Positions 20,216 to 46,689 of a DNA stretch of 64,000 bases are shown here, one piece after another. The position numbers and the translations under genes were made by a program. Each line of letters opens with the position of its first letter. The first letter of the stretch is position 1. Under the pieces are notes generated by a model. It made no database searches, was not told the DNA's origin, and was given only the letters and a program-made list of their open reading frames with translations. The DNA is from Tomocerus qinae (taxonomy: Eukaryota > Arthropoda > Collembola > Entomobryomorpha > Tomoceridae), in assembly GCA_020055645.1 (NCBI GenBank), contig CM034546.1:120950375-121014374 (forward strand), written 5' to 3'.

Positions 20216-20287
20216 TAGATAAATAGTAGTTTCTCATTTCCACTTATCTAACTTTTTTCATTTATCTACACACTAATCCAAGCAAAA

Positions 20288-24600: not shown

Positions 24601-24712
24601 GTCGTAACTGATCACAGTTCACTAACTTCACTTATGAGAAATAAAAATCTTACAGGAAGATTAGCTAGCTTTGCTTTACGACTCCAACCTTATACTTTCA
24701 CCATCGAATATC
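21655..24712 (+). pseudogene. pol: gypsy pol, 5' part: protease, reverse transcriptase, RNase H
   Basis: This is the first part of the gypsy polyprotein, open from its ATG to the Polinton insertion. Residues 1-180 are Ser/Asn-rich. The retropepsin active site is LTDTGAS (Asp 205), with the partner strand LVLGVDW near 285. The reverse transcriptase region spans about 630-830 with FCIDYRKLN and the catalytic YLDDIIIHS (770). The RNase H domain begins at KVFSDASLEG (Asp about 919) and continues to VVTDHSSL. After FTIEY the frame runs into Polinton sequence and stops at 24,813. The continuation of pol is at 41,379. Within this part there is no frameshift or stop, so only the insertion disables it. 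Confidence 0.95.
24707..24712 (+). repeat. Polinton target-site duplication, left copy
   Basis: The hexamer AATATC directly precedes the element terminus TGATGATTAT and recurs directly after the other terminus at 41,379-41,384. Six bases is the duplication length typical of Polinton/Maverick integration. Confidence 0.9.
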
Positions 24713-24780
24713 TGATGATTATAAAAAGCATCCGCCATGACAGGCGTTGCCTGTCATGGCAGATGCTTTTTATATATTGG
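24713..24780 (+). repeat. Polinton left terminal inverted repeat with internal hairpin
   Basis: It matches the inverted right end over about 64 bases, with about six differences. Inside it, 22-base arms around a 5-base loop (CGTTG) form a nearly perfect palindrome with one mismatch, centred at about 24,750. Known Polinton ends usually start AG; this one starts TGATG. Confidence 0.9.
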
Positions 24781-25066
24781 AAAATAATTTTAAAAAAAAA
24801 TTTAATGGGGTGAAAAATTCGCTCTAGTACTAAACATCTGTATTCATGGGAAGTAAGTTATGAATAGTTCACACATCATATTTAATATGAAGACTTAACC
24901 TATAAAGAACATAAAAGTTTTATGAGAAAGTTATAAAAGTAAAGCGTCTAGACATATGGATTTCAACAGATTTACAAATCTTGAAATACAACATCTTTTA
25001 GGTATTTAGGTCATTAAAAAATAAATAAATTACAAAAAAAAAAATACAGTATAATATAAATGATTC
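24781..25066. other. Polinton left subterminal non-coding stretch
   Basis: Very AT-rich, with homopolymer A and T runs. No open frame or promoter was recognised. Confidence 0.5.
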
Positions 25067-25450
25067 ATGTCATCTACAATGTGTCAGTCGACAACTGAGC
25101 TCCAAAGCAAAATGAAAATAAAAGTGGTTGTTAGCTCGGAATATCACCAATACCCTTCAATCCTGAACAAACCATGTAGAAAGAAAATAAAAATTGATTA
25201 CAAACCAATCACTATTCACACAGAGCTAACACTAACTACATCTAAAGATAAGGATGTAGTGTGCTATAGTGTAAACCAACGACAAAAGATTACACAACAG
25301 TCGTCATCGTCATTTACACCACCTGTTCTTAATTTCCAGTCTATTACCCCAAAAACGTTGTTATCGACTAATGAGCCTTTTCTGGCTTTACAAACTTTAA
25401 ATACAGCCGTAAAAGATTCATTAGACATTAATATTTCACCTCTACAGTAA
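25067..25450 (+). CDS. Unrecognised Polinton protein (127 aa)
   Basis: An uninterrupted ATG frame that is the first gene from the left end. The product has basic segments (KPCRKKIKIDYKP) and a Ser/Thr/Pro-rich middle, without membrane segments or metal-binding motifs. I do not recognise the family. Being open in an element where most genes are broken makes it more likely to be real. It might be a structural or host-interaction protein specific to this lineage, but there is no direct evidence. Confidence 0.5.
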   Translation: MSSTMCQSTTELQSKMKIKVVVSSEYHQYPSILNKPCRKKIKIDYKPITIHTELTLTTSKDKDVVCYSVNQRQKITQQSSSSFTPPVLNFQSITPKTLLSTNEPFLALQTLNTAVKDSLDINISPLQ

Positions 25451-25654
25451 AACAAATTTTGTCAAATCAGTAAAAATGCTTTCAGGATCTAATTTAATCA
25501 TCTAATTCTAAATGTGTATTATTATTTTATAGTATTAAAATAGCTCAGTTTTGTTATCCATGCCATTACAAAACAACCATTTTTTTCAAAACGTTTCTAC
25601 ATAAAGTTTATAACGAGGAGTAACACAATAAACTGTTTCCACTTATTATTTCCC

Positions 25655-25691
25655 TATAAATACTTTTGAAGTACAGAATAACTCTTCATTT
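25655..25691 (+). promoter_or_regulatory. TATA box and initiator upstream of the minor capsid-like gene
   Basis: TATAAATA at 25,655-25,662 is followed 33 bases later by TCATTT (A at 25,688), matching the arthropod initiator TCAKTY at the expected spacing. The next ATG is at 25,747. Confidence 0.5.
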
Positions 25692-25746
25692 ACATTTAAC
25701 AATTACATTGCTTAACATAAATAAACAAAATAATTACATTTTTAAA

Positions 25747-26167
25747 ATGAAATCCATATATACTTTTTCCGACGGTCATTATTTAGAGACTCTTCAATCC
25801 CAAATTCATAAGGGGACACCTTATAGCGTTAGTTCTAGGGTACAAAGAGGAGGGGTTTGTTCTCTACAATGGCAAGATATGTATTGCCAGTCATCAAAAA
25901 ACATGTCATTGCTAGCGCAAAACGAGCGGCGATTAAAACAGCATCAGATGTGCTCTGTGGAACATCCATAAAGCAAGCCATTAAAACAAATGGAATTAAT
26001 TTAGCAAAGGAAATTGGAAAGAATATTATTTCTTCAGTTAACCAAAAGGTTCTGGGAAAGTAAGAAAAAGGAAGTTGTTGACTTCCACATTTGACCATAA
26101 CGAAAAGAAGAAGAAAAATTCAGAGAATAAAACCACCAGTTTTAAAGAAGGGTATCAGGAGAAATAA
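25747..26167 (+). pseudogene. Minor capsid / membrane-active (pVI-like) protein, frameshifted
   Basis: The first frame (ATG 25,747) has a Tyr/Gly-containing head that ends near RVQRGG. The reading continues one frame over from about 25,852 with an amphipathic, Lys/Ala-rich helix region (ARYVLPVIKKHVIASAK). It then changes frame again near 26,060 into a Lys-rich tail ending at about 26,167. A Gly-rich head followed by R-x-V-L-P and a basic amphipathic helix is the pattern of the small Polinton capsid protein often compared with adenovirus pVI. It lies directly before the major capsid gene, as is usual. Two small frame breaks make this copy inactive. Family assignment is from pattern memory, so moderate. 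Confidence 0.5.
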
Positions 26168-26185
26168 AATAGACATACTGTCATA

Positions 26186-27440
26186 ATGTCTTTACTCCAC
26201 ACATCATCTCAACCAGCGATTCGTGATCAGGCAGACTTATTTTCATCATTATTAACAGGTAAGTTACTTTATATTTTCTACACTAATTTACTGACGGTTA
26301 ATTTACATTTTCTCAATAGATACAACTGTAGAATCGAGTTTCTATGTTGAATTTAAACCTGTCGTGAACATCCAGGACTCTGATGCAAAATTAGAATTTA
26401 AAATAATGGGTAATAGCAGCCACTACCTGAATCTTGGGGATCATTTTTTAACTCTATGTGTACGTTTGGAACAAAACAATGGTGATCCCATACCTCAAGA
26501 AATAGACATTAGCGTCACCAATAACACATTTCATTCTTTGTTTCTTCAATGTGAGGTATATGTAAACAATCAAATTGTATCTACAACGAATAATTTGTAT
26601 CCTTATAAAGCTTATTTCGAGGTAGTGTTTTCTTATAGTAGGGATTATTATGAGTCACAAGCGTCCTGTACGTTATTTAACCCTGAAGATGACGCGTCTG
26701 TGGTAGATACTGCAAATGGTGGTTACTCTGAAAGACGAGATTTATTTAAGGGATCCAAAAATGTAGAGTTAGTAGGAAAACTACATATTGACTTGGGTAA
26801 TCAAAGCCGTTACATTCTTAATGATACAAACGTAAGCATTGTTTTGACTAGGTCCCCTGATAACTTTGTCATTTTATGTACAAACACCACTCTTGACGAA
26901 GATGCTGCTAGTACATTTATCCCCAGAATAAAATTTTTAGACGCAGGATTGTTCATTAGAAAGGAAATTTTGTACCCAAGTTTGGTTGTTGCCCACCAAA
27001 AGCTCCTAGACAAGGAAGAGATTGCAAAATATTTTTATCAAAAAAAAGGTTTAAAATATTTTACAATCCCAAAAGGGAACCAGTCTTTTGTAGAGGAGAA
27101 TGTCTTTGTAGCAAATGTTCCCAGTAAAGTAATTTTGGCTTTCGTATCTAGCAGAGGTTTTAATGGAGATCTTGCCTTAAATCCATTCAATTTCTATCAC
27201 TACGATGTCAGCTACGTAGGTGTTTCTGTTAACAATTACTGTACAGGAAACACTTTCTTTGCATTCGACATTTGCCCCTCAGATAGTGAGAACAACATCC
27301 TACATTTGGAAAAGTCAGGTAGTGTCCGTATAGAGCTAAAATTTCATACAGCTCTACCAGAAGCTGTTCACTGCCTTGTATATTCAGATACCCAGGCTGT
27401 CTTAGAAATAGATAAGTATCGACAGGTGGTATCTCACTAA
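26186..27440 (+). CDS. Polinton major capsid protein (double jelly-roll type), spliced
   Basis: Exon 1 (26,186-26,258) begins ATG and encodes a head with the LH...DLFSSLL pattern. A 61-base GT-AG intron (26,259-26,319) joins it in phase to exon 2 (26,320-27,440), about 397 residues in all. The conserved block HSLFLQCEVYVNN followed by NLYPYKAYFE and later RYILNDTNVSIVLTRS is typical of the hexon-like capsid protein of metazoan Polintons (annotated as F54H12.2-like in many animal genomes). It forms the icosahedral shell. No stop or frameshift was seen, unlike the neighbouring core genes. Its TAA overlaps the next ATG (TAATG at 27,438-27,442). Confidence 0.85.
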
Positions 27441-27928
27441 TGGATACATTACAATTACAATATATTTTACAACACACAATTGCCGACAGTAATAAATTTG
27501 TAAACGTTTTGTCGTGCGATAAATTGGAATTTGTTCCCAACGAAGAATTTGCCATAATTGTTAATTCAGACCCTTCTACAAAACCTGGCTGTCATTGGTT
27601 AGCATTCTTTAAAGAAAAATCAGACAACTATGTTGAATTTTTTTGATAGTTTTGGATTTCAATTAGCTACTATAATTTAGAATTTCAAAAATTTGTAAAT
27701 AGATTAAATCTTAATGTAAGGTTAAGCAAAAAACAATTGCAATCACCAAGCCGGATCGTATGTGGTCAATATTGTGTATACTTTTTGCTAAATAGAAATA
27801 TCCACAAAAAGTTTCAAGATATTATTCAACCCTTTGGGAAAAAATTAACTAGTAACGATAGATATGTAGACAAATTTGTCCACTCTATACCGCTATACAA
27901 TTCTCCTTTAATAAAACATGTAAAATAG
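27440..27928 (+). pseudogene. Adenain-like cysteine protease, frameshifted
   Basis: This is the maturation protease that cleaves capsid precursors. The catalytic His lies in PGCHWLAFF and the Cys in VCGQYCVYFL, with an acidic residue after the VEFF strand (DSFG pattern in the shifted frame), matching the His-Asp/Glu-Cys order of the adenovirus/Polinton protease family. One extra base in a run of seven T at about 27,638-27,644 closes the first frame. A second shift near 27,665 restores the frame that ends at 27,928. The start overlaps the capsid stop by one base, which suggests translation coupled to, or a transcript shared with, the capsid gene. Confidence 0.75.
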
Positions 27929-28019
27929 ATTGTTTGTCTTGTTATAAATGTCATGATACATATAAAAGAAATCCTTATATTCAAACTATTATATCATTAT
28001 CTAAACATGTAAAATAAAA

Positions 28020-29014
28020 ATGAAGAATAAATTTGCAACTATACCTCTCTGTCAATCTGTGTTTAGTCTTTATTGGGTTAGCATGTCTAACAACTTAATT
28101 CAGTCCGCTTATTTAAATCCAAAACATCCAGCGAGTTTTGGAGGCATAAATAGATTAAAAGACGCATTTCCATCAGCATCAATTAAACAAATTCACACTG
28201 TGTTGCGAAAAGAAGATTGCTATACTAAACATAAAAATATACGTAGAAGGTTTAGACGCCGCCAAATTATTGTTCCAGGTAAAGATTATATTTGGCAAGC
28301 CGACCTAATTGATGTGAAAAAATACAGACGAGAGAACGATGGTTTTAACTTTATCTTGACCATTATTGACGTGTTCAGTAAATATGCCATTGCTATACCT
28401 ATTCAAAATAAATCCGCCAAAGAGGTAACAAAAGCTTTTAAATACGTATTTAGTAAGGGAAATACACCAAAATTTCTGAGCACTGATTTTGGGAAAGAAT
28501 TCTTCAATCGTAAATTAATATCGTATTTAACTGACATTAACATTATTTTATTTCTCGTAATTTTTCAGACAAGAAGTGTAGTGTAGTAGAGCGTTTCAAT
28601 AGAACATTATTTCTAAGATTATCTAAACTATTTACGTTTCAACAAAATTGTAATTACACTAATAATTTACAGAATGTAATTACCTCATACAATAACTCAA
28701 TTCATCGCAGTATTGGTATCCAACCATCTAAAGTTAACAAATATAATCAATTTGATATCTGGCTAAAACTATATGAGAAAACAATTTCTTTCCGTAATAA
28801 ATCCAAAACTCTTTTTCATGTGAACGATGAAGTGAGAATTGTGAAAGATAAGAATTTATTTCAGAAAGGATATGATTCTAATTTTTCTTCGGAAACATTT
28901 ATGATCTGTAAGGTAGTTAATACCACCCCAGTTACATATAGAATAAAAGATAAAAATAATATTTGTATTGACGGTATTTTTTATAACGAGGAAATGATTA
29001 AAATAAGTGCTTAA
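28020..29014 (+). pseudogene. Polinton RVE-family integrase, one frameshift
   Basis: This is the integrase that inserts the element and makes 6-base duplications. The N-terminal helical region is followed by the RVE core with catalytic Asp residues in WQADLIDV and LSTDFGKEF. The catalytic Glu (in VVERFNRT) sits in another frame after a break around 28,545-28,555, close to a T run. The shifted frame then stays open to 29,014 and contains the conserved NNSIHRSIG segment and a small beta-rich C-terminal domain. Translation may start at 28,020 or at the internal Met at 28,083. All three acidic residues are present in the DNA, but no single frame encodes them. Confidence 0.85.
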
Positions 29015-29058
29015 TGACATTAACACCCCATTCTTAGTTTATGGATTGACTCAAAAGG

Positions 29059-29791
29059 ATGTCCTTCCATATGTATCTAACGTCCTCTTGTTCTAATTAT
29101 TTCCCTGATAATACCACCAACAATTTCAAGGTACAATTGCCATCTAACCTTAACATCCAGGCACATGAATACGAAGTTTCACTTACCGAGTTGTCACTAA
29201 AAATCAAAACAAATTGTAACGAAAACAATTTTTTTATTAAAAAGTGCTCAAACGACATTAAATCGAATAGTTTTAAAAGCTTTTCAATTCCCAATAGTTC
29301 CTTCAGGACTGTATCTAGCTTAGTAGCTTATATACAATCCATTATTGAAAAAACTGACTATAAAGATCATATAACATTTAATTTTTCGAACATAACGAAT
29401 AGAGTGTCAGTGACAATATATAATTGTGAGGTAAAATTTAGCAAGCAATTGGCAAGTACAATAGGTTTGTGTGAGTTTTATAGCAACGATAGCAGTTGAG
29501 AGGTAATGTAATTGTAAATAGTTTAAATCCAAGTACTAACATATTCATTTGTAGTAATATTGTCGAGTCAAGTATCTTTAACAGTAATTATGAGAAGATC
29601 TACGTTGTATACCTGTGAAAACTGGTAATACAGACAGTGTATTTCACCACCTTAGTGATCAATATTTCAAGGTGCCTGAAGGAACATATAATAGTATAAG
29701 TATATATTTGAAATCAGATAAAGAGGTGGATATATGTTATGAAATTGACGTTGTTAAACTACATTTTAAAAAAGTAATTAATAAAACATAA
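29059..29791 (+). pseudogene. Polinton penton-like minor capsid protein, frameshifted
   Basis: The N-terminus has the YFPDNTTNNFKVQLP pattern followed by EYEVSLTEL, the signature of the single-jelly-roll minor capsid (penton) protein of Polintons. The first frame stops at 29,499. A continuation with NPSTNIFICSNIVESS lies one frame over (about 29,515-29,625), and the C-terminus (VDICYEIDVVKLHF) is in a third frame ending at 29,791. There are at least two frame breaks. It is placed between integrase and ATPase on the same strand, 45 bases after the integrase stop. Confidence 0.7.
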
Positions 29792-29797
29792 CATATT

Positions 29798-30430
29798 ATG
29801 ACTAATGTAAATGAAAACGAATATAAGTTCAAACATCCTTGCTCAATCGTTATAGCTGGCACCTCAATGTCAGGCAAAACGACATTTGTAGAAAAAATGT
29901 TAGAACACTTGAGCACATTGTTCAGTTCTTCAATTACGAATATTGTAATATCCTTTGCTAAAGAACAGAGTTTATACGACCGAATTAGAAATAAACATCA
30001 AAAACGTAACGTTTGTAAACAACCTTGAGCTAGATGATTATTATGATTCATTAATCGTCATCGACGATCAAATGACAGATGTAGCAAAAAGCAGGAAAAT
30101 TCAGGAGTTATTTATTAAAGGAGTTCATCATAATAGAAATACAGTTATATTAATTAACCAAAATCTATTTCCTCAGGGACAATTTGGGAAGGATATGAGG
30201 TTAAACACACATTATTTATGTATTTTCAAATCCCCCTCATTTCTGTCTCAAGTACAATATTTAGGAGGACATATTTTCCTCTTCACCCTTCATTATTAAC
30301 CCATGCGTATTTAGATGCCACCAAGTCTCCATACTCATATTTATTTATAAACTTACACCCAGAGTGTGATGATAGAATACGAATCAGAACCTGTATTTTA
30401 CCTAGTGAAGATGAGGTGATTTATACGTAA
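29798..30430 (+). pseudogene. FtsK/A32-type genome-packaging ATPase, frameshifted
   Basis: Walker A is AGTSMSGKTTF (residues about 24-34) and Walker B is SLIVIDDQM in the next frame. They are followed by the LFIKGVHHNRNTVILINQN segment typical of Polinton and NCLDV packaging ATPases. The frame changes near 29,990-30,020 and again near 30,270. The last part (DATKSPYSYLFINL to the stop at 30,430) matches the usual C-terminus. The start is only 6 bases after the penton stop, so the late genes are tightly packed. The order penton-ATPase supports the call. Confidence 0.8.
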
Positions 30431-30475
30431 GAAGTTTTCTAATCATTTAGCTTTCTCACTCCATCATTCTTGTTT

Positions 30476-30884
30476 ATGAGTTTGGTAGATGAGTATCGTA
30501 TTTTGGTATTGTCTATGTTTCAGTTGAATATGAGTAGGTGTACAGATAGAAACAAGTTATTTTTGGAACTTTTAAGTAAAGCTAACCCAATTCAAAGAAA
30601 TAAAGCAATTAAAGAGGCTACTGCTGACAATCTTCATTGTATCACAGAGGTGGCTGTGAACACATTGAAGGGCAATATCCCAATAAAACCAGAGCTAAAA
30701 GAAAAATTAAAAAGTATAAAGTTCAATTCGAAAATTTTCTGAAAAAAAAATTATCTGTTAAAAAAAAGAAAAAAACATTTTAAAGTATAGTAAGCATCTG
30801 CCATTATTGTTACAACCATTTTTGTCAGCAAGAGGTATCATTATTGGTAGAGTTGAAAGCTCACATTTAAATTTACAGTAAAAA
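30476..30884 (+). pseudogene. Small conserved-type Polinton protein, C-terminus frameshifted
   Basis: ATG 30,476 opens a helical Lys-rich protein of about 88 residues with the pattern NIPIKPELKEKLKSIKF. Downstream of its stop (30,742) another frame encodes a Lys-rich stretch and a hydrophobic tail (PLLLQPFLSARG) up to about 30,882. I recall similar small proteins (helical head, L-T-x-x-x-K-x-x-L-K-x-x-K, then basic and hydrophobic tail) between ATPase and other late genes in animal Polintons. The function is unknown. The A-rich region around 30,742-30,780 is where the frame is lost. Confidence 0.45.
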
Positions 30885-30901
30885 GTTTTAATAAATTTTA
30901 A

Positions 30902-31662
30902 ATGTCGAAGCGCATGAAACTAATTCCTGAAAAGGAATACCATCATCTACATACATTAAAAGCAAAGCATCTACAGCTTCCACAGTTGTTAGAAGAATCC
31001 TCAGTTATAACAAAAGATAACGAGGCTTCAAATATATTAACATCTCAAATTCCAGACGATATAAAAAGTCAAATGTATAGTAGTATTATGAAAAGCGTAG
31101 GGGAAAATATACAATTGATTCTTAGGAAGCCAATTAAAGTAGAAATCGGTGAAACAAAAGCTAATTTGTCTGGACTGGCACCTATAGAAACCCCAGTTTT
31201 AAATCAAGACGATATAATATTAACACCTGAGGATAAGCTACTATTAGCTTCAGTTCCACCATCAAATAAATCTGCGGTAAAACACATTATGAGCCTTCTC
31301 AAGGAAAATGAGCAGATATCTTGGGATAATAGAGGCACTGTGAGATTCTTTGCCCAAATCCATGTGAGGGCTCGAATATAATTGATTTGATAAGCTACAT
31401 TACTAGAAATCTTAAGTGGGTTGTACATCCACCAGGAGTTAACAGATTTTTGTTAGTTTGCAAAAAAATTAATATTCCTAGCACATTGTTAAATACTCGG
31501 TTACGTAAAGAATGGTGTCAACCTACTTTAAAACCTAGAGGAGATAAAACTCGCATAAGTGCCAATATTCTACAGCCTTCAACTTCATCTGAGGTTTCCT
31601 GGACAGCATTACGGAAAGAAGACCAAATTATAACGTTGGACGAATCAGTGAATAGCAGTTAG
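30902..31662 (+). pseudogene. Polinton late protein of unknown function, one frameshift
   Basis: ATG 30,902 follows a TAAAATTTTAA-like stretch. The first frame (159 codons) starts MSKRMKLIPEKEYHHL and is helical and charged; it stops at 31,381. The second frame, open to 31,662, continues with SNIIDLISYITRN. The combination of a K-R-M-x-L-I-P-E head and an N-I-x-D-L-I segment recalls an uncharacterised conserved Polinton virion-associated protein. I cannot assign a role. The break lies around 31,350-31,375. Confidence 0.45.
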
Positions 31663-31738
31663 TAGAAGACTAACATGTAAGAAATTTTAATGTCATTCAA
31701 TATTATGATTTCAATCTATACACAACAAAAATTTGAGA

Positions 31739-32473
31739 ATGGCATCAAAATATTATATTTGTACTACAGGACATGGTATATATAATTTAGATATGGTGAC
31801 TTTACAGTCTAGAATTTCCTCTTATACAAATATCAGGCTACAGTATAGTAACGTTTTTCTATTAAATTTGGTAAAATGTGGTTTTTATTACTCAGAAATT
31901 GAAGATAAGTTGTTTTGCTACTTTTGTGGGTGTACTTTATTAAAAATTTCAATAGTGATAATCCATGGTTGGAACACTCAATTTCCTATCCAAGGTGTCC
32001 TCATTTGCTTCTGCATAAAGGAAATAACTCCAAAGAACCAGACACCAACCTAGAAACCCTTATGGTATGCTTTTTGCTATAATTTAAAAAATGTTTTAAT
32101 TTAATATTAAATTTCAATTTTACTTTAGAAAGTTGATGACATACCATGCATTGCGGACATACGTAACTCAGACCCATGGAGTAATGGTGTGTTGAACGTC
32201 TACTACTACTATTATCATAAATGTGTTTTATTTGCTAAATATATTTTAAACTTAAATTGCATTGTAGATTTTGTTCAGAAAGCGTTTTTTGTTATGGGTG
32301 AAAATTTATGTCAAATTTGTATGGAGAAAGAATCCATATATATGATGTCACCTTGTAATCATCTTGTATATTGTTCTAATTGTATTTGTACCCAACAGAA
32401 ATGTATAATTTGTCGTGTACCTCATGTTGGTTTTATGAAAGTTTTAAATCATAATGTTTTAGTTTTATTGTAA
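31739..32473 (+). pseudogene. IAP-like protein: one BIR domain and a C-terminal RING, spliced, one frameshift
   Basis: Members of this family block caspases and can ubiquitylate partners. The BIR half begins with an Arg-Tyr-rich strand and has LVKCGFYYS, CYFCGC and, one frame over after a break near 31,945, the zinc ligands EHSISYPRC (C-x2-C...H-x6-C). An intron (32,065-32,128, GT-AG) joins to an exon that encodes CQICMEKES, PCNHLVYCSNC and CIICR, a complete RING-HC of about 40 residues near the C-terminus. Single-BIR plus RING is the architecture of baculovirus IAPs and insect IAP1-like proteins. It lies at the end of the late-gene strand, where accessory genes are expected. Whether it came from the host or a virus cannot be told here. 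Confidence 0.75.
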
Positions 32474-32592
32474 TATTTCTTGTAAAATTTATCAATGAAA
32501 ATAAATCACTTGTTCGAGAATAAAATGAAGACTTGCTCAATGTTTATTAACGCATAAAGGAGTAAATTATTCAGTTAATCTTATAATTTCAT

Positions 32593-33035
32593 CTACGAAT
32601 TATCCTCCCGATATCTTGAAAGAGCGATCTCATATTGGTCATCTCTTGGATTGTCTATCATCTCATCTGCATACTTCATAACATTTAACCATATTACATT
32701 ATGATTGTCCCTTAGTCTCCGAAGATCAAATTTTTCATTCCTGTTAACATACAATTAAAACATTAGTCAACAAATTTTGGTTTATGTAAATGATTAATTA
32801 CTCACTCTTCAGCCATGTCCAAAAGTGCTGTCATCAATGACCGAATTGTACGACTCCAACGGTGTATGGTACCCACGCGAAGTTCCTCTTTAATAATTTC
32901 AGCGATTAAAAGAATTCGTAGTGCAGACCTATTGTGACCCAAAGTACTTACATACACTGTCGCCCCATAATAAGATAAAAGTTCTTTTGCCATATTGATA
33001 CATGTTTGAGATCTGTGATTTGGGTTGTAAGACAT
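32593..33035 (-). CDS. Unrecognised two-exon Polinton gene (125 aa)
   Basis: Minus-strand exons 33,035-32,806 and 32,740-32,593 are joined by a 65-base intron with GTGAGT donor and TTAACAG acceptor, in phase (230 + 148 bases). The product is helical and charged (for example RWSRTIRSLMTALLDMAEE) with no metal-binding or membrane motif. I do not know the family. The correct splice phase and uninterrupted frame in a decayed element support a real gene. It is transcribed convergently with the IAP-like gene, their ends being about 120 bases apart. Confidence 0.6.
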
Positions 33036-33348
33036 GATGGCTAAATAAAGTATTGCGAGATGCTGATTCGGTTAAGAGAAATAACTTAATGATAAACAAC
33101 TACTATAAATTCTCTTCTACCACGTTTGTTTTGACTGTCCTTCTAATCACTGCACCGTTTCAGAGCGTGATAGTCAAAAGAGTTCAACTTGTTCTCACAC
33201 AACATCAAATACGGTTTATGATTACTACCGTGCATTCACCTACTATAAAATAGATTTTCTTGACCAGTCACTTACTGAAGGAGTAGCAAGAAGAAGTGGA
33301 TTCCTCAGAAAATGTCATATCTATATTACGCTACGACTTGTGATTTAG

Positions 33349-34152
33349 GCCTTGCCCTATAAGGTTGTCTAACAATGCAGCAGGATACTCCATTCTCAGG
33401 TGACATACTTTTTTGTTGACACATATTTTTAAAATCTATATTTGTGAATATGTATTTAAATGAAATACCCTTGTTAACTGCATTTTACACAGTAAATTCC
33501 ACTATACTGATGCAGTACTTTCGTTCATTGTTAGCATATACAAATCAAATGACCTATATTATGGTATATGATTTTGTTAGTTCTTACATGAAAAATTTGA
33601 AATTCAGTCACAGTATATGTGGTTTCAGTTGTATTGTAAAGTCTATACAGTGGGTGTATTTTTTACTGATAGTTAAACTGTAAATAATACTGTCACATAA
33701 TAAGTCACATAAATGCAACAGAAAAGTAATGTCATCTATTTACGTTTACAGCCCGGTTGACGAAGTTATAAAACAACATGATTCATATCTCCTGAACACC
33801 TGTCTATCAGTAAAATTGCCTGTAGGAACCTACGGAAGAATCACTAACACCAACGAGTTGGCTTGGGTTAGCGGAATTGATGTTTCCAGTAAGTAACTGT
33901 TCTGTAAATTGTAAAGATGTTAGTTTTCGTAATATAATAATTAAAGTAACATAATAACTAAAAATTAAATTTTAAAATGAAATCTCAACAGTTGGCTACG
34001 TTGATCCTGGGGATTGCAATCCTATCCTGGTATTGTTACGAAACACATCTGACACTGACTATCACTTCTTCAGAGGCGAACCTATTGCCCAATTAATTGT
34101 TGAGAAGTATGAAAGCTGCGTATTAATTCCACTTAGTTCTTTAAATGGGTAA
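33349..34152 (+). CDS. dUTPase-like protein, spliced, start unresolved
   Basis: Three exons give a trimeric dUTPase pattern: about 33,349-33,399 (motif I, SNNAAGYSIL), 33,752-33,888 (PVGTYGRI, motif II region degenerate) and 33,992-34,152 (GYVDPGD as motif III with its Asp, GEPIAQLIVE as motif IV). Introns are GT-AG and phases match. dUTPases hydrolyse dUTP to keep uracil out of DNA, and many DNA viruses carry one. The usual motif II serine pattern (RSSLA) is altered to TNTNELA, and the glycine-rich motif V is not seen after motif IV, so activity is doubtful. The 5' end is unclear: an upstream exon is needed, or a frameshift separates the Met at about 33,312. Confidence 0.65.
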
Positions 34153-34354
34153 TACTAACCAGACGAAATAAAACAAATGAGAGGATAATGTGAATTGATT
34201 TGTGTATTTATTCATGTACATTCATGTATTTATTTATTTATATATATATATATAAGTCATTCAAATGTACAGAACCAGTATTAATTAATTTATTATTATA
34301 TTAATATAATCTAATATACTAAAAATGTAAAAAAGTAATAATCATATAATGATA

Positions 34355-37300
34355 TTACTTTAACCTTTTTAGTAGAAAATGGTTGTGAGCCAATGTATTT
34401 ATTCCGTCAGGGAGAATGTATCTTTTCGAATCAAAAGGATGCATTCCCTCTTATTGGATCTTATCGTATGAATAGCATGATTTTTAGACCTAATTGAATT
34501 CATGGAGAAACTCAAATTTTTCTGCCTCTTTAATACCTTTTGATACATCTTGTGGTCGACACTAGCTTTAACTACATACTTTTTAATACCCTTTTGCAGC
34601 CTTTTTCCCGGCGTTAGGTCCCTCCATACTATACATTTTGGGGGAAATACCTATCCAAGAGGTAATAATTTCCCCATGGTTATCTTCCGACACACACCCA
34701 ATTTTTTTCTTGTTTACCAGGCTAAAACATTTATGGGATTTTTCAAAATCACTGGTGTCAAACAATTCTTTGTTGTCTAGAATATCTGCGTAAAAATCAG
34801 GAGTGAAAATCCTGTATATAAGGCTATCAGTATCAGTTCCTAAAAGTAGTGCCCTGGGACCGTATTTATCCTTCATGAAATCATAATGAAATCTATACAT
34901 ACATAATTTACTAATTTCAAGCACAGAGAAAGCGATATAAATAGGTTTATTTAAAACTACTCTTTTTTTACCCATTACATATATAGCCAAATTTTCATTA
35001 ATTATATTAAATGTTTGGAAATTACCTTGACTACTTAATTTTCTCCCATATACAGGATCATTAACGATTTTTACTATGGTTCTCTTTCGCACATTTTCTG
35101 CAGATTTCCCAAAAGTTAAGTTCATGCAATTTTTCCAGAAAGCTTTTGGCAAATGCAGAAAGGGCTAGACCTCTTTCTCTCCCACATAATGTTATGTATG
35201 GTTTCATCCATGCCTCTTGGTAAAACTGAACAATCCTATGCACCTTTTTAAGAACCATACCTTTCAATAAATAGTATTTTAGATTCCTATAATGACAGAC
35301 GTAATTACTTCTGCTTCCCAAATGCGGAATTAGCTTTTTGTTACTTGAATTATATTTGATATGTAATTTGGAATTTAAGTTCTGTTGATATTCAGATAAA
35401 GATTCAAGAGGGATTGATATTTTCTCTGGGGCTAGAGGATAATCATTGTGTTCTACGTGAAGAATATCAGGGTACTCTAAGTCTACTTCTAAAATGTAGC
35501 CCATTTCCCCTTCATCGCTCAGGTTTAAAACATAATTATAGTCCCAATTAATAAGATCGTCTTTTGGAACCCATTGGAAGTCTGATACAGGGAGGTTAGG
35601 GAGCATAGCTTCACTATACAAAGAATTTTTGTCAAGATAAGCAATATAAGCCTCCTTTTGAGAGTTTTTACTACTTTGATTCACATATCTGTTTTCCACT
35701 TCAGCCTCCCTAGTAGTAATCATGCTAACCCCACCACGTAATGAGCTTTCTATCATATTATACATCTCTAAATCCGCCAAAAGTTCTAATTCTACCTTAG
35801 ACACCTTTAAACTAGCATCCCAACAGAAACTAGCTAAACTAAAGTAATATGCAGGATCTAACCCAAAACTTTGAATACCCAAATCCCTAAAATTTTCGAA
35901 TACAGACGCTAATAATAACACATCTGTTAAAACATACAGGTCATGATAGTCACCCATGTTTTTGACAGTAAATGTCAAATACCGACCTACCATAGTCATA
36001 ATCCTCCTTACTTTACGCCAGACTCTGTGACTTCGTTGTAGAATTCTTCCATTGTAGGAAATGTTTTATTTTCAAAAACACCCCAGTGGTTAATATAATC
36101 ATAGGGGTAAACCCTTTCCTAGAAAGAATTTTTGCTTTGTGTAACCCAAACACAGACACCAATGGACTAAATTTTAATTCGAATTCCTTATCTGTGGCAC
36201 ATGATGATTTTAATACGTCCACTAATTCACTCAAAGAGGAATTAAGAAACATATTGCTATCTATAAACTGAAAGTTTTCACATATCACACTTAAGTACCT
36301 TTCAGAATTGGTGGGAATAACTTCAATCTTTCCTTTATATTTTTCAAACCCTTTAACTATGATATGGCTATCATAAGTTTTGAAACTGTGCAATGTTACA
36401 CATACCTTTTGTGGTTGTTTATAATTTAAATTGCAATTTCTACAGGCTGCATTTGTGAACGTCCCGTCTAGGTGATTGTGGTCACGACATTTTTCACCTA
36501 GAGGTATTTTCTCTTCGCAAATATGACAAACCTTAGTGGCTTTATAGCTTAACCACTCAGACTTCGTAAGTCGATTCATTTTAACAGGATTTTTATATTC
36601 CTTTAAAATAGAGTCACAAATCTCCTCAATTCTTTCAAAAAAAATATCCACACAATCCTCTCCCCGATATACATCATGCCTTACTTCACCTACTCCTGAT
36701 TTTATAACAACCAAGCTGAACCCTGATGGTTCATGAGTTGTAAGAGATTTAGTTTTCAACCCAAACGTTGAATCTTTAGGTGAAGAAGGTATTTGTAATG
36801 CTTCAAAATCGGCATATATGATATAACCCTGTCTTAATTTATTACAGTAGTTTTTTGAATTTAAGCACGGTGGGAGAACCATCTTCCTGCAATTCAGGAA
36901 GTACTGTTGTTTGTGGTTTAAAATTTTTACAATTTTCAAATGCTCTTTTAAGTCATGTTTCTTTGTTAACCTATTCAAACAGTTAAAGCACAAGTGTTTT
37001 CTTCTCCTGTTTTGTGTTCCGAGAAATTTATTGATGTCTGTTATTGTAACATAGTGACCAACCGTGTGTTGTGGGTTTTTAAAGTATAATAAATTTACAA
37101 CTTTGTAAGAACTTCTGTAGCATAATTTCGAAATTCTCATTGGAAATAACTCTCCACTTTTGTAGAATGATTGGTAACCAAATATATTGACAGCAATCTT
37201 TCTGTGGGTATTACGTTTTTCAAATAGATCAATTTGCGATATCTTGACTGGGTAATGTAAACCATAAAAATCATACTTACTTTCAAATTCCAAATAACTA

Positions 37301-38203
37301 CTCTGTCTCTTTACATTCTTGTTTTTTTGTGGGTCTATGCAAAGCAGCAATAACTGCCCATTTAAAACATTGGGTATTTGTGTTGTTAATATTTACAACA
37401 CACCTCTTATGCACTATTTCCGGTGGTAGGTCAGCATAACATCCCCCTCTAAACGGTGTAAAAGATGCTATTTTAATATCTGATCCTAGCACAGCAGCTA
37501 AAATCCAAGAAGAACCATTTTGCTCAAAAATATTTGCTCCCTGTTCATTTTGCTGCATTGCATTTTGGTAAGGTTTCAGAAACATAATGATCATTCAAGC
37601 AGATTTCCATATTGCTATTGACAAAATGCTCATATCTTTCCTCACCACCAATAATCGTTCTAGTGAAGAGACAAAGTACAGAAATTTGACATTTTATTGA
37701 TTTAAATTTTGTAATGATGATTTAAAGATCTTTACCACCACATCATCAAAAGTTGAGAAATAGGAATTGACACTAATGGAAGCAAATTCTGACTATGATT
37801 TCTACCATATCTGTGTCTATGTTTTTAAAAACCCTCGTAATGCTTTGATTTCTTTGAATGGGTAAAAACTACTGTTGGTTAGACCTGTCCCTACCTGAGC
37901 ATTACAGTATAGTTTATGTTGTTCTACCTCACTAAAGCTGGAACTGCTATACGTACATAAATTACATCGATGGTTGCTATTAACATGTTGATTTAATTCT
38001 AACAGTGATTTACATATCTTCCCACATAAATGGCAAAGTTTTTTGCTTACAATATGTCTCCCTTTTCTGCTCCGATGTTGTAGCTTTATGTGACGATGTA
38101 GTTCATCAGATGTTTCGAAACGACAAAAACAATTCATACATTGAAATACCCAATGGATATCCTCCGACCCGAAATCATCTTCAGATTCAGCCTCATCTTC
38201 CAT
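34355..38203 (-). pseudogene. Polinton DNA polymerase B (protein-primed type), multiple frameshifts
   Basis: This is the element's replicative polymerase with a proofreading exonuclease. Reading from 38,203 downwards: two C2H2-like fingers (CMNCFCRF...H, CHLCGKIC...H), a linker with SGW-like and QCFKWAVIAAL segments (about 37,510-37,350), a Cys-rich patch (CFNCL), exonuclease motif I IYADFEALQ (about 36,820), a degenerate motif II (LHSFKTYDSHII, Asn replaced by Ser), motif III LYVLTDVLLL, polymerase motif A YLDKNSLYSEAM and motif C GTDTDSLIY (about 34,835). The C-terminus (KRYILPDGINTLAHNH) ends at 34,355. Frames change near 37,320, 36,010, 35,100, 34,590 and 34,440, and also between 37,600 and 37,815. 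The gene is therefore dead in this copy, though all main motifs remain readable. Confidence 0.9.
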
Positions 38204-38611
38204 GCTAAAAATTTAAGAAAATATATATAATTTACATTCATTTTGATACGTAATATAATATACATTTCCTAAAATAAAATTATAATTTATTCTTTATCTT
38301 ACTTTACTTGTTCTGTATAAGTCTATTTATGGCGATTCCCGTCAAGTTGAGTATATCTGGGTTGTGTTGCTCAGTAGTTTATTTCTATTGTATATGGACA
38401 ATATTGTCCACTGACAATAATTTAACGAAGTGAATGAATTTATGGAAAATTAGTGACTTGTATCTTATAATGTAGAAATTATCCAGTAGTTGTCCGTGGG
38501 AAAAGGACTGACCTGTAATGTAATTCCATCTAAACTATTCATTCCTATGTCTAATATGCATATATCACACGTATAGTATAAACTGAGGTTATGTCTTGAC
38601 TTTTGCTACTA

Positions 38612-38648
38612 TATAAATAGCCACACTTTGTTTCTTAACCATCAGTCC
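38612..38648 (+). promoter_or_regulatory. TATA box and initiator of the PC4-like gene
   Basis: TATAAATA at 38,612-38,619 is followed at the correct spacing by TCAGTCC (A at 38,644, 32 bases from the TATA start), the consensus arthropod initiator TCAKTY. The first ATG, at 38,729, starts exon 1 of the downstream gene. Confidence 0.7.
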
Positions 38649-38728
38649 TACTTCGAGATTCTTCACTTCTCATCTCTTCACCTCGTTAAAGTCGTTACTT
38701 TTTCCAACTACTTCCAATTCTGTGAATA

Positions 38729-39385
38729 ATGCCTTCTGGTAATTCCACTTCTTGCTACATAATATCAATACATTTATTTCTAGTATTAACATTTCTTGAT
38801 TTTTGATAAGTAAATGTTTAATTATTGGTTGGGAAATTAATATCTAATTCTACATGTTGTTTTTTAAATTTAGAATCTGAGTCTTACAGTGGGTCATCTT
38901 CAGATGAGGACGAAATTGCTGTAGCCGCACAGACAATGGCAACCGCAAATCCGAGATCCCAAGCTTTTAAGGATGCTGTTGCTATCGTGAAGGCTGCAGA
39001 GAAGAAGAAAATTCCTGTGGTCGCATCGAAGGTGATTCGCAAGAGGAAAACATCTTCCAAGCCAAAGAGAGCATCAAAGAAAATTGCTCCTGAAACACAA
39101 CATCCCCCTCAACCACCCTGTGGCGACAGTGTTCCTGTCACTAATAACTACGCCCAAAACGAAAAGGCAGAGTGTTCTAAAGATTTACAGTATAATGGGT
39201 ATGTAGGACAAGGGTGGTTTGTTCGGATCTCAAAATATGAGAAAAATAAGAAGCAATATATTTGTATCAGGCGGTTTGAAGAAAATAGTCCTGGGAAATA
39301 TGGAGCCAATATTTCTTTCGAATTAATAGAAAACTTGAAACAAGCTGTGGATGATGTTTATGCGATGATTAAATCGCTTGAATAA
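38729..39385 (+). CDS. PC4/p15-like ssDNA-binding transcription cofactor, spliced
   Basis: Exon 1 is only ten bases (38,729-38,738). A 135-base GT-AG intron joins it in phase to exon 2 (38,874-39,385), giving about 173 residues. The head is acidic and Ser-rich (SESESYSGSSSDEDE) and is followed by a Lys-rich nuclear-localisation-like segment (IRKRKTSSKPKR). Then comes a 60-residue C-terminal domain with GWFVRISKY, ICIRRFEE, GANISFELIENLKQAV and AMIKSL, matching the PC4 fold (beta sheet plus helix) of eukaryotic positive cofactor 4. The acidic-Ser, basic, PC4 order is also that of animal PC4. Cellular PC4 binds single-stranded DNA and promotes transcription and replication; a similar role for the element is inferred. 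The frame is intact and has its own promoter. Confidence 0.7.
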
Positions 39386-39750
39386 ACATACCAAATATAA
39401 AGGTTTGGATTCAGATTTTGTTAAATTTTAGTAAGTTCTCCTATTAATCGATAAATAATGTGTTGCTAAATAATTATAAATTAAATTTTATCTGTAAGCA
39501 AAATTTATCTGTTATTAGACACAATAATAATAAATATTTCCATTATTATAAATATAAAAAAGTATAATATGAAATATTGGTGTATACTTAAAATAAAGGG
39601 TTATAATTCAATTGCAACTAATAAAATTTATGATTAGTTAATTCAACTAAAACAACTTTGATTTTCCAAGAATTTTACTACTAATCAAGGTATTAGAACC
39701 AAGCTAGTGATAATAGAGAAAAACTTATTTAAAACCTTCCATAGAATTAT
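39386..39750. other. Polinton AT-rich non-coding stretch
   Basis: No supported open frame. The stretch holds AATAAA-like signals after the PC4-like gene (for example near 39,595) and otherwise low-complexity AT-rich DNA. Confidence 0.4.
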
Positions 39751-39992
39751 TTACTTATTTGTAGAAGCTTTCACAGCTCTCTCAATCAGCTTTCTGTGTC
39801 TGTAAGTGAATTTATTTTCGATTTTCAGTTTCTTGTCTGTATATTTTCGGGAAGCATTGAAATCTTTATCATTTTTCAAGGCTCTCTTGTATTTCCTCCG
39901 CTTGACTTAACATCTTTTGCATCTTTGAATTCTTGCTTTTTTTAGGTATTTTGAAAAATTCTGTGAAATCTTTCTTCTCAAACCCATCCTAT
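39751..39992 (-). pseudogene. Possible small basic protein, broken
   Basis: On the minus strand an acceptor-like TCCTAATAG precedes a Lys-rich frame (GFEKKDFTEFFKIPKKSK) that ends in a stop. A second frame, from the middle to a TAA at 39,751-39,753, encodes KYTDKKLKIENKFTYRHRK. Both are strongly basic and helical, as if one small gene had lost its frame near 39,900. I do not recognise it, and an upstream exon could not be fixed. Confidence 0.3.
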
Positions 39993-40179
39993 TAGGAAAT
40001 AATAGGGGTTAATTAAAATTGGACAAAATTAATATCGTTAAGTTTAATTTTTCCAAAAAATAGTCAAAATTAAATTCTTACATGATAATTGTAGCAAAAA
40101 GCTAATATAAACAAAATTACATCACAAGTTTTGTGTCTATAATACACATTCTCGGAAAACATCATAAGTAGAAATTAAT

Positions 40180-40316
40180 GTTTTCGATAATCTACCGTAA
40201 AACAGTTTACCTGAGATCCGCCACATGAAATGTAAATATGTCGGGTACCTTTCAAAGGTATTCGACAGCGTTATGTGGACTTCGGGTAAACCGCTTTCGA
40301 GTACATTATCGAAAAC
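40180..40316. repeat. 137-bp imperfect palindrome near the Polinton right end
   Basis: GTTTTCGATAAT at 40,180-40,191 is complemented by ATTATCGAAAAC at 40,305-40,316. The arms continue (CAGTTTACC against GGTAAACCG, CCACAT against ATGTGG) to a centre TACCTTTCAAAGGTA at about 40,253. A few indels separate the arms. No coding use is evident. Confidence 0.75.
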
Positions 40317-40711
40317 ACAAATTCTCACAATGGTCCTTCATTTACCTTACTGTATTGGATAGTCCAGGATATTTCTGGAGATTTTTCCCTGTTAAGTCTA
40401 GATCTATAATGAAAAAATAAAACCTGTGAACTCTTCAACTCACATACTCAACACACGTAACACTCAGCACTCGATTAATAAGTGCTATATACGTATGTAT
40501 GTATGCACAGCGATCGCTGTACGTATCCGAGCTCACCTTTTAGCTGATTCCAATTTAATAGCACTTTGTCTACGCTGTATTTTGGTATCTGTGTCACTGA
40601 AAAGCGGTAAGTTATAAATAAGTTAATATTTAAACATATTTATTACACACAGTATATAATATATTATACATATATTACTTTACAGTAAATTGTCTATTAA
40701 AAAGTATATGG

Positions 40712-41122
40712 TTACCCTTCAACGTAATCCATACTTTCATGGATTGTCGATCTACTTTGTAGTTTCTTTAGCTTATGTCGTCTTCTCTTCTCTCGCTTTC
40801 TCTTTATCCTAAAAAAAAAAAGAATCACATAATTGTCATAAGCGGATATAGAGATTTAATGTGCCACAATTGTATAATTTTACTTACTTATTGTCAATAC
40901 CATCGTTACAATGTCCTAACTTCTTCAGTTGTTGCTTCAAATGGTGTATCTGGTTTTTGACTTTCCGCTTACTGCTTATATTTGTAGCGTGGCTGAAATA
41001 AAAACAGTTTCTGGGTATAAACCTAGAATTTATATTTACTAGTTAAAATAAACAAAAATATCATAAAATGTTAACCTTTTAGCTTGATCCATGATATCAG
41101 CTTCTAGGGAACTTGTAAACAT
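40712..41122 (-). CDS. Three-exon gene for a very basic 82-aa protein
   Basis: Minus-strand exons 41,122-41,076, 40,992-40,888 and 40,808-40,712 join in frame (47 + 105 + 97 bases) across GT-AG introns of 83 and 79 bases. The central part is a Lys/Leu-rich helix (KNQIHHLKQQLKKLGH) followed by a strongly basic stretch (KIKRKREKRRRHKLKKLQ). This suggests a nuclear, nucleic-acid-binding or virion-core protein, perhaps a short coiled-coil dimer with a basic arm. I do not recognise the family. The ATG lies 256 bases inside the right terminus. An intact frame over three exons is unlikely by chance. Confidence 0.6.
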
Positions 41123-41310
41123 GATATTTTACAGTTTAGCGCTAATGCAATTATAGAAAACTGTCAATACAGCAGTTTTTCAATTCATGTATATGGGTCA
41201 GTTTGTAGAGTGAGCTGACGACTAAACAAAAGCAATGAGATGTACACATATTATGTATTCTCACCAACATAAGCATGTAGCGATAATAAACAAGCATGTA
41301 AACTCTACTC

Positions 41311-41378
41311 CGTCATTATAAAATGCATCTGCTATGACAGGCAACGCCTGTCATAGCAGATGTATTTTATAATCATCA
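41311..41378 (-). repeat. Polinton right terminal inverted repeat with internal hairpin
   Basis: This is the inverted counterpart of the left end (about 90 percent match over 60 bases). Arms of 27 bases around a CAACG loop form a nearly perfect palindrome. The element ends ...AATCATCA and is followed by the duplication AATATC. Confidence 0.9.
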
Positions 41379-44300: not shown

Positions 44301-44401
44301 ACAGTATCGGAGTTGATCCTGACACAAACAAAATTCAAGTGTTAAGCAAATCGTCATTTCTAAATGCCACTAAACCAATCCACGTACCGACGAGAAATTA
44401 G
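41379..44401 (+). pseudogene. pol: gypsy pol, 3' part: integrase and long C-terminal extension
   Basis: This is the continuation of gypsy pol after the Polinton. The first motif is YRKGPKHNNVDPLSR, the usual end of the RNase H to integrase linker. The integrase has an HHCC finger (HEDIGHLGF...CQSCHTCQ) and the catalytic triad D (codon 41,981), D (42,164) and E (42,272) with D35E spacing, then a GPF-type WRGPFQIV segment. About 500 further residues follow: a Ser/Thr/Pro-rich disordered tract (42,850-43,900), then a folded-looking end (about 43,960-44,400) with YVQIAKDTPRSAVNEQF and CHIVLGIDVVSRY. That end resembles a retropepsin fold with an altered active site (DTP instead of DTG). Open throughout. 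Confidence 0.9.
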
Positions 44402-45680: not shown

Positions 45681-46689
45681 TGTCAGGTAGATTTACATTG
45701 TCATCTACTTATTAGTCATAAAAAGCTTTGCTTATATAGTCCTATGCTAACAATAATAAGTAGCAGCCGATTCTTTGTGATTTGTATGTTTACCACCTAA
45801 TTACATATACCTATATCGCTTGTATGCTATATTCTTATACAATACCAAGAATAGATGCCCAACTTTACTTATTAAATGTAAATAAGCTTAAGCAAAGCCA
45901 GCCGAGAAGGTCGATGGCTGGAAAACAGATAAGAGATTGTTAGATTTTTAGTTAGATTGGTTTTGAGTTGAACTGGACTCGGTCGTGAAGCAATTATCGT
46001 CCGACATTTTTTTTTCTTTTTCCCAAATATTGTATTCTCAACACCAAACACGTTTTTCAAAACCCCAATCTCTTTCGTATAAACAGTTACACATCTCTGT
46101 AAAAATTCAGTTCAACAGTTACTTCATTTCCACCCTTAAATTCCACTTTCAACGCTGATTTGTATCCCTAGCCATATTTTCCGCATTGATATCGAAATAA
46201 GATAATTCCCTACTTCTGTACGGTGTCGGTACTTTATAAAAATATAGAAAATACTCTTTTCCCACTACCATTTTTGTGAATCAATTTAAGTAATCTATAC
46301 GAGTTGTCTTTCCACTTGGGTTTTTATCCTCACGAAATTCTAAAGGTTTCCCAAGTATCATTATTATTCACATTAATCAAATCCTTCAATAAAAACTTAA
46401 ATACATCTTTGCAAATTAAAAAGACCAATCTCTGTGTTGTGCATTTCTTCAGTTCCAGACATTCTCTTTAGTGCACAGACTGTTAATCGAACAATAATAT
46501 AGCCATTCATCCCATTACATCCAACCCACATCTCGGAGCCTATGATAGAACGGACTATCATATGCACATCAACTTATCCCTTCATATTCCATAAGACTTC
46601 TTTACCCAAAATAACGCAAGAAGAAGAAGATATATATTAGAAAACATTAAAAACAGAAATATATGAAATTCACATTAAAATCCGTAAGA
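45681..46689 (+). repeat. gypsy 3' LTR
   Basis: Same length (1,009 bases) as the 5' LTR and, as far as I can compare by eye, identical in sequence. It is followed by the duplicated CTAT and resumed satellite. Confidence 0.9.

What the first reader, a model, noticed from the sequence alone, without database searches (positions are those of the whole stretch)
24713..41378. Complete-length Polinton/adintovirus-like element landed inside a gypsy pol gene
The boundaries are visible to the base: inverted termini starting TGATGATTAT, a 6-base duplication AATATC, and an open gypsy pol frame up to and directly after the insert. The gene set (integrase, PolB, protease, ATPase, two capsid proteins) is that of Polintons. 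An insert of a virus-like element into a retrotransposon inside a satellite gives a clear three-layer stratigraphy.
Basis: partly seen in the sequence, partly recalled or inferred. Interest (0 to 1): 0.75.

Follow-up and report, generated by a model that had tools for sequence, protein, structure and literature searches.

The report
Young Polinton virus with hairpin ends
A 16.7-kb integrated copy of a DNA virus of the Polinton/adintovirus kind sits inside a gypsy retrotransposon, itself set in satellite DNA of what is likely an animal genome, and its two ends are palindromes that are predicted to fold into hairpins and likely help the virus copy its DNA.

Summary
A 16,666-bp element (24713-41378) has TGATGATTAT...ATAATCATCA ends and a 6-bp duplication, AATATC. 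Leaving it out with one duplication gives an open 2,054-codon gypsy frame. The gypsy's LTRs are identical. Eight copies were found in the genome, each with both ends; seven have matching 6-bp duplications.

Genes are Polinton/adintovirus-like: double-jelly-roll capsid, adenovirus-type protease, rve integrase, family B polymerase, possible ATPase. "Complete-length" fits the size, not the coding state: the window capsid gene lacks 43 codons and its polymerase is split, while some siblings are open.

A sister family has a longer, different palindrome at the same place; 7 of 23 aligned pairs changed on both sides. In the capsid tree the clade is otherwise environmental contigs (37 of 41 rows). An IAP-like gene (BIR, RING) is carried.

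Best reading: a recently mobile Polinton lineage whose ends likely act as snap-back origins for protein-primed replication. New variant of a known kind.

The parts
24713..41378 (+). Whole Polinton/adintovirus-like element, 16,666 bp
   Evidence: Ends shared by eight copies in the genome; ends read
24707..24712 (+). Target-site duplication AATATC, left
41379..41384 (+). Target-site duplication AATATC, right
24713..24774 (+). Left terminal repeat: TGATGAT tip plus palindrome 24720-24774 (stem 26, loop 3)
41317..41378 (-). Right terminal repeat: palindrome (found as 41315-41373, stem 28, loop 3) plus ATCATCA tip
26295..27440 (+). Major capsid protein gene, 43 codons missing against seven siblings
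   Evidence: fold of relative P0009:
27416..28015 (+). Adenovirus-type protease region (place approximate, carried over from the sibling copy on C3; frame not whole in the window)
28005..29014 (+). Integrase region; rve core in the frame 28005-28586, a second frame 28541-29014 follows
   Evidence: the sibling frame ends at about the same place
29050..29499 (+). Fragment of a 247-aa sibling gene without family match; minor capsid protein only by position and size (inferred)
29949..30299 (+). Fragment of a 168-aa sibling gene with weak P-loop ATPase matches (place approximate)
31709..32473 (+). IAP-like gene: BIR (31709-32053) and RING (32129-32473), apparently split by GT-AG introns (by eye)
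34583..38212 (-). Family B DNA polymerase, broken into several frames; the C2H2 piece 37817-38212 lies inside the 1,285-aa frame of open siblings
38822..39385 (+). 187-aa frame of unknown function, also open in two siblings
20252..24712 (+). Gypsy gag and 5' part of pol (target)
41385..44401 (+). Gypsy 3' part of pol (target)
17825..18833 (+). Gypsy 5' LTR
45681..46689 (+). Gypsy 3' LTR, identical to the 5' LTR

Best explanation
This is a young integrated copy of a Polinton (adintovirus-like DNA virus) that a retrovirus-type integrase, likely its own, inserted into a gypsy retrotransposon, and whose palindromic ends are predicted to fold into hairpins that likely act as snap-back replication origins. 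How it would work: (1) integrase joins the CA-3' ends of the linear DNA to a staggered cut and leaves 6-bp duplications (duplications shown; the enzyme is inferred). (2) The linear genome would be copied from each 5' end by its polymerase, primed by a protein as in known Polintons; the tip TGATGAT doubles a triplet, which suits the jump-back start of adenovirus (recalled; inferred here). (3) A strand displaced during copying would fold its end into a short duplex 7 nt from the tip, and so make its own double-stranded origin without pairing of the two genome ends (inferred). (4) Arms that stay complementary while their letters change are the trace of that folding (changes shown; cause inferred). 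(5) The window copy, with part of its capsid gene gone, could move or be packaged only with help from siblings (inferred).
For: Eight copies with both ends; seven of eight with matching and mutually different 6-bp duplications; rve integrase, adenovirus-type protease in a sibling, double-jelly-roll fold of the nearest capsid relative, polymerase relatives. Only two stems of 18 or more in 64 kb, both at the ends; longest stem 15 in 40 simulations. Sister family: same TGATGAT tip, different and longer palindrome, 6-bp duplication TGTATG. Four distinct ends: 87 of 92 cells paired, 7 of 23 pairs changed on both sides, 31-41 of 80-88 cells when slid. Youth: 3-20 substitutions per about 7.2 kb between seven copies and a target gypsy with identical LTRs.
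Against: No activity data. The open 1,285-aa polymerase frame of a sibling matched no polymerase model in Pfam; identity rests on its relatives. Terminal-protein and OTU-like domains were not tested. Only two families show the palindrome at the very end, four distinct ends in all, and a distant family of the same genome has palindromes further inside 135-141-bp repeats, so palindromes in the repeats may have another, general role. One sister end has extra mispairs (L033). One of eight copies has no duplication.
Confidence: 0.6

Rival explanations
1. The terminal palindromes are docking sites for the integrase or a by-product of DNA repair and play no part in replication; the element is otherwise an ordinary Polinton.
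For: The palindrome abuts the integrase-processed tip; a distant Polinton of the genome has palindromes away from its tips; no replication data exist.
Against: Stem length and letters changed together between families while pairing stayed, and the palindrome makes up nearly the whole terminal repeat. Neither excludes the rival.
Confidence: 0.3
2. The ends are covalently closed hairpin telomeres (or parvovirus-like foldback ends) of the free genome, opened only for integration.
For: Both ends are near-perfect foldbacks.
Against: Seven bases lie outside the stem at each end in both families, and the genome encodes a relative of polymerases that in Polintons are protein-primed (PMC11071308, passages); no Rep-like or telomere-resolving enzyme was recognised in the frames scanned.
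Confidence: 0.08
3. The frame breaks of the window copy are assembly errors, so this copy may be less damaged than it looks.
For: 17 private gap columns against 6 private substitutions in about 7.2 kb, 11 of 17 in homopolymers of 4 or more, which hold 10.3% of the bases; one sibling (C2) is alike with 16 and 3, five have 0-5 gap columns.
Against: The gypsy on both sides is open over 2,054 codons and its LTRs are identical; homopolymers are natural indel sites too; the 129-nt capsid gap is no such error type.
Confidence: 0.5

Closest known systems
Vertebrate Mavericks/Polintons (PMC8097293, passages read)
   Same: Integrase, family B polymerase, protease, capsid gene, terminal inverted repeats, 6-bp duplications, a repeated short motif at the tip
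   Different: Tips there are (AG)3 or (AGT)2; here (TGA)2. Here the terminal repeat is only about 62 bp and almost all palindrome. An IAP-like gene is carried.
Adintoviruses (definition from PMC11071296, passages)
   Same: Adenovirus-like capsid and protease genes joined with a retrovirus-like integrase and family B polymerase
   Different: OTU-like polymerase domain and integrase chromodomain, part of the definition, were not tested; terminal palindromes were not mentioned in the passages seen.
Nematode Mavericks with cargo genes (meeting report PMC10680173, one passage)
   Same: Polinton that carries genes of host type
   Different: Cargo there: wosp proteases and krma kinases; here BIR and RING.
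Bidnaviruses (PMC11071308, passages)
   Same: Polymerase of Polinton origin; foldback-like ends are a lead from memory only
   Different: Parvovirus-type capsid and single-stranded genome there; double-jelly-roll capsid and integrase here.
Polinton family F5 of the same genome (L040, L045, L046)
   Same: 6-bp duplication AATACT, doubled triplet tip AGTAGT, palindromes in the terminal repeats
   Different: Repeats of 135-141 bp, palindromes lie inward, capsid about 31% identical over the matched part.

Membership tests
Polinton/Maverick | Retrovirus-type (rve) integrase | tested here: met
   PF00665 E 4.3e-10, above its cut-off, 28005-28583
Polinton/Maverick | Family B DNA polymerase | tested here: met
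   4,968 relatives, the best listed about 50% identical, several with PF03175. Against: the open sibling frame itself has no Pfam polymerase match
Polinton/Maverick | Polymerase is protein-primed (terminal protein, OTU-like domain) | not tested
   No fold of the N-terminus was run
Polinton/Maverick | Adenovirus/Ulp1-type cysteine protease | tested here: met
   PF00770 E 4.2e-7, above its cut-off, in the sibling on C3; frame not whole in the window
Polinton/Maverick | Packaging ATPase | tested here: inconclusive
   P-loop matches only (Pox_A32 8.4e-4, PRK 5.9e-4), all under the curated cut-offs
Polinton/Maverick | Double-jelly-roll major capsid protein | tested here: met
   Relative P0009, 49% identical: predicted fold, pLDDT 85.4, matches Sputnik, iridovirus and PBCV-1 capsids. 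The window protein itself was not folded
Polinton/Maverick | Minor (penton) capsid protein | not tested
   247-aa candidate without family match; no fold run
[quoted passage not shown]
   one of eight copies lacks the duplication
Vertebrate Maverick end-motif group | Tips (AG)3 or (AGT)2 | tested here: not met
   Tips are (TGA)2; motif as given in PMC8097293
Adintovirus | OTU-like domain in the polymerase, chromodomain in the integrase, capsid recognisable by BLASTp against adintoviruses | not tested
   No adintovirus reference set was compared; definition from PMC11071296
Gypsy retrotransposon (target) | RT - RNase H - integrase order, LTRs, short duplication | tested here: met

The most novel reading that the evidence does not exclude
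This is the first host-linked member of an animal virus lineage otherwise seen only in environmental contigs, whose linear genomes end in snap-back hairpins 7 nt from a doubled triplet: adenovirus-style protein priming joined with a self-made duplex origin at each end, a state that could bridge Polintons and foldback-ended bidnaviruses.
Probability: 0.22. Interest if true: 0.8.

Novelty: new variant of a known kind. Interest (0 to 1): 0.5.

Why it matters
It ties a capsid clade that otherwise consists of environmental contigs to a likely animal genome in which it moved recently, and it shows a kind of viral genome end, a near-complete palindrome kept by paired changes, that can be tested directly on the ends of those environmental contigs. 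A recently mobile Polinton with an IAP-like gene also bears on whether Polintons still make virus in animals.

Tried and rejected
An apparent internal copy of the terminal repeat at 30769-30804 is 72% over 36 nt; a search with the core found only the four terminal arms: taken as chance. Solved structures: polymerase piece P0003 gave 0 matches, the integrase only weak HTLV-2 integrase at E 0.45-0.49. Scans of viral contigs with the window capsid and with 30 relatives confirmed none. Rfam at gathering score and ARAGORN on the window: none. Host by named gypsy relatives: frogs, a pseudoscorpion, spiders and others, no answer. Host by mitochondrial contig: none recognised among 18 contigs sampled of 115, 300 bases each. 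Ends of family F2: not in the stretches read. Right ends of two more sister copies: not found by exact match in the 6-kb stretches read. The MAFFT alignment of the ends misplaced the tips and was replaced by an ungapped pairing of the arms. Weak endonuclease VII matches in polymerase piece P0001 (E 5.1e-4) were not followed up.
Full report
WHAT IS THERE. The element runs from 24713 to 41378. Its ends read AATATC|TGATGATTAT and ATAATCATCA|AATATC. A search of the window's own genome (334,443,149 bases in 115 contigs; window at C1:120950375-121014374) with the first 400 bases of the element finds eight left ends and eight right ends that pair into eight copies, and no solitary end (16 of 16 candidates scored, though the tool calls such counts lower bounds). 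Lengths: 16,666 bp for the window copy, 16,781-16,819 for five siblings, 17,421 and 19,008 for two with inserts. Duplications: AATATC (window), TATATA, TTTAGG, TACAGG, TACTGG, TATATT, AACGTC. The eighth copy, C1:62.0 Mb, has GAATAT and CAATCC, so none. Seven of eight is what integrase-made insertions give.

STRATIGRAPHY. Left of the element lie gag and a pol frame with reverse transcriptase and RNase H; right of it pol goes on with H2C2 and rve. Joining the flanks with one AATATC removed gives an open frame of 2,054 codons, and in 7 of 7 homologues compared (of 120 listed) the protein runs through the join. The gypsy LTRs, 17825-18833 and 45681-46689, are identical over 1,009 bp, with CTAT on both sides, next to a 40-bp satellite. 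So the order satellite, gypsy, Polinton is right, and the Polinton came into a gypsy that is itself very young. Whether empty gypsy copies exist elsewhere did not complete.

GENES. In the window: rve integrase, BIR and RING (nearest solved structures are baculoviral-IAP-repeat proteins), capsid protein and polymerase by homology. In the sibling on C3, whose frames are open: adenovirus-type protease (E 4.2e-7), a P-loop protein (weak, under the cut-offs), BIR (E 6.6e-11), a 422-aa capsid frame and a 1,285-aa polymerase frame. That polymerase frame has no polymerase match in Pfam; its identity rests on 4,968 relatives found with one window piece, several of them marked PF03175. The nearest capsid relative, P0009 (49% identical), is predicted to have the double-jelly-roll fold (pLDDT 85.4) and matches Sputnik, iridovirus and PBCV-1 capsid proteins; in a viral library its first match is a protein of Cotesia sesamiae bracovirus, 30% identical. 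A second capsid protein was not shown.

STATE OF THIS COPY. Its capsid gene lacks 129 nt, 43 codons, that all seven siblings have; the frame is open in five of the seven. Its polymerase is split, while the frame is open in two of the six siblings that were covered over the whole gene, a seventh being covered in part. Over about 7.2 kb, against six siblings, the window copy has 6 private substitutions and 17 private gap columns, 11 of them in homopolymers of 4 or more, which hold 10.3% of the bases. The C2 copy is alike (3 and 16); the other five have 0-5 private gap columns and 1-11 private substitutions. Such an excess of one-base gaps looks like assembly error, but the gypsy on both sides shows no frame break in 2,054 codons. 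I leave this open and name no copy as functional.

AGE. Pairwise substitutions number 3-20 in about 7.2 kb among seven copies, 0.04-0.28%. With a target whose LTRs are identical this means recent movement. No absolute date is claimed.

ENDS. In the 64-kb window only two palindromes have stems of 18 or more, and they are the two ends; in 40 first-order Markov simulations of the element the longest stem was 15. Each end is predicted to fold as seven unpaired bases plus one hairpin (DNA parameters). The sister family (capsid 61-69% identical; four left ends and one right end read) has the same TGATGAT tip, a palindrome with a stem of 36-37 instead of 26-28, and TGTATG duplications in the one copy read on both sides; one of its left ends, L033, pairs less well. 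Pairing the arms without gaps over 23 positions in four distinct ends: 87 of 92 cells pair, 16 pairs do not vary, 7 changed on both sides, none on one side only; slid arms pair in 31-41 of 80-88 cells. Two of the seven changes lie between the left and right end of the window family. The sample is small. A distant family of the genome (F5, C1:75.1 Mb) has AGTAGTAATG tips, AATACT duplications and 135-141-bp repeats with palindromes further in, so palindromes as such are not peculiar to this clade.

PLACE AMONG RELATIVES. A capsid tree of 67 rows (rows of 350 residues or fewer dropped; of ten host capsid stretches fetched nine were used, C1:82.3 Mb left out) puts the window family and its sister in a 41-row clade with support 100/100; the other 37 rows are environmental. 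Seven other Polinton copies of the same genome and two Folsomia candida proteins lie outside. The longest contig listed for those 37 rows has 19,745 bases (P0030), about one genome length, while the Folsomia proteins lie on contigs of megabases. This suggests free genomes but does not show it, since environmental DNA also holds animal fragments. The genome has at least 136 capsid matches (a lower bound; one gene may match in pieces).

MECHANISM. Shown: ends, duplications, palindromes with paired changes, gene families. Inferred: the element's integrase made the insertion; the polymerase is protein-primed, as described for Polintons (PMC11071308, passages); the doubled triplet serves a jump-back start as in adenovirus (recalled); the hairpin makes a duplex origin on a displaced strand. 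The main rival is that the palindrome serves the integrase or is kept by repair alone.

LITERATURE. Tips and duplications of vertebrate Mavericks: PMC8097293 (passages). Adintovirus definition: PMC11071296 (passages). Cargo genes in nematode Mavericks: PMC10680173 (one passage). Searches for hairpin or palindromic Polinton ends and for IAP genes in Polintons or adintoviruses were seen as listings of the best 12-20 papers; none of the titles is devoted to either. The library lacks most subscription papers, and the paper that proposed adintoviruses was not held, so no claim is made that these features are unpublished.

HOST. Not settled. The capsid hits that bear an animal name (P0055, P0056, P0058) and the first polymerase hit are from the springtail Folsomia candida. 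From memory, the assembly size resembles that of the springtail Tomocerus qinae; PMC10432511 and PMC12693562 (passages) confirm only that such a genome exists.

Noticed in passing
31709-32473: IAP-like gene (BIR, RING) inside the Polinton, apparently with GT-AG introns; looks like a captured genomic host gene. BIR is shorter in the window than in a sibling (E 1.7e-5 against 6.6e-11).
   Followed up: partly
24713-41378 against 20252-24712 and 41385-44401: The window copy is rich in private one-base gaps against its siblings, while the gypsy around it has no frame break: real defects older than the insertion, or local assembly error.
   Followed up: partly
L040, L045, L046 (G000 C1:75.1 Mb): A distant Polinton family of the same genome has AGTAGTAATG tips, AATACT duplications and two palindromes inside each terminal repeat.
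   Followed up: partly
L005/L012 (C1:62.0 Mb) and L023/L042 (C1:25.06 Mb): Two sibling Polintons carry inserts of their own, about 0.6 kb (with about 22 bp doubled) and about 2.2 kb; the first also lacks a matching target duplication.
   Followed up: no
17825-18833 and 45681-46689: Identical gypsy LTRs; the identical stretch starts TGTC but ends AAGA, not CA.
   Followed up: no
55032-56750: A 130-bp tandem array that turns into its reverse complement at about 56192 (by eye from the consensus units).
   Followed up: no
57501-59325: BED zinc-finger frame (174 aa) followed by a 405-aa frame; possibly a hAT-type transposon (recalled, not tested).
   Followed up: no
L059 (G000 C100:1-300): Open frame that looks by eye like a polyketide-synthase methyltransferase piece on a 17.5-kb contig: horizontally acquired gene or bacterial contamination.
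   Followed up: no
G000: At least 136 capsid matches in the genome, many in open frames of 400-480 aa: several young Polinton families side by side.
   Followed up: partly
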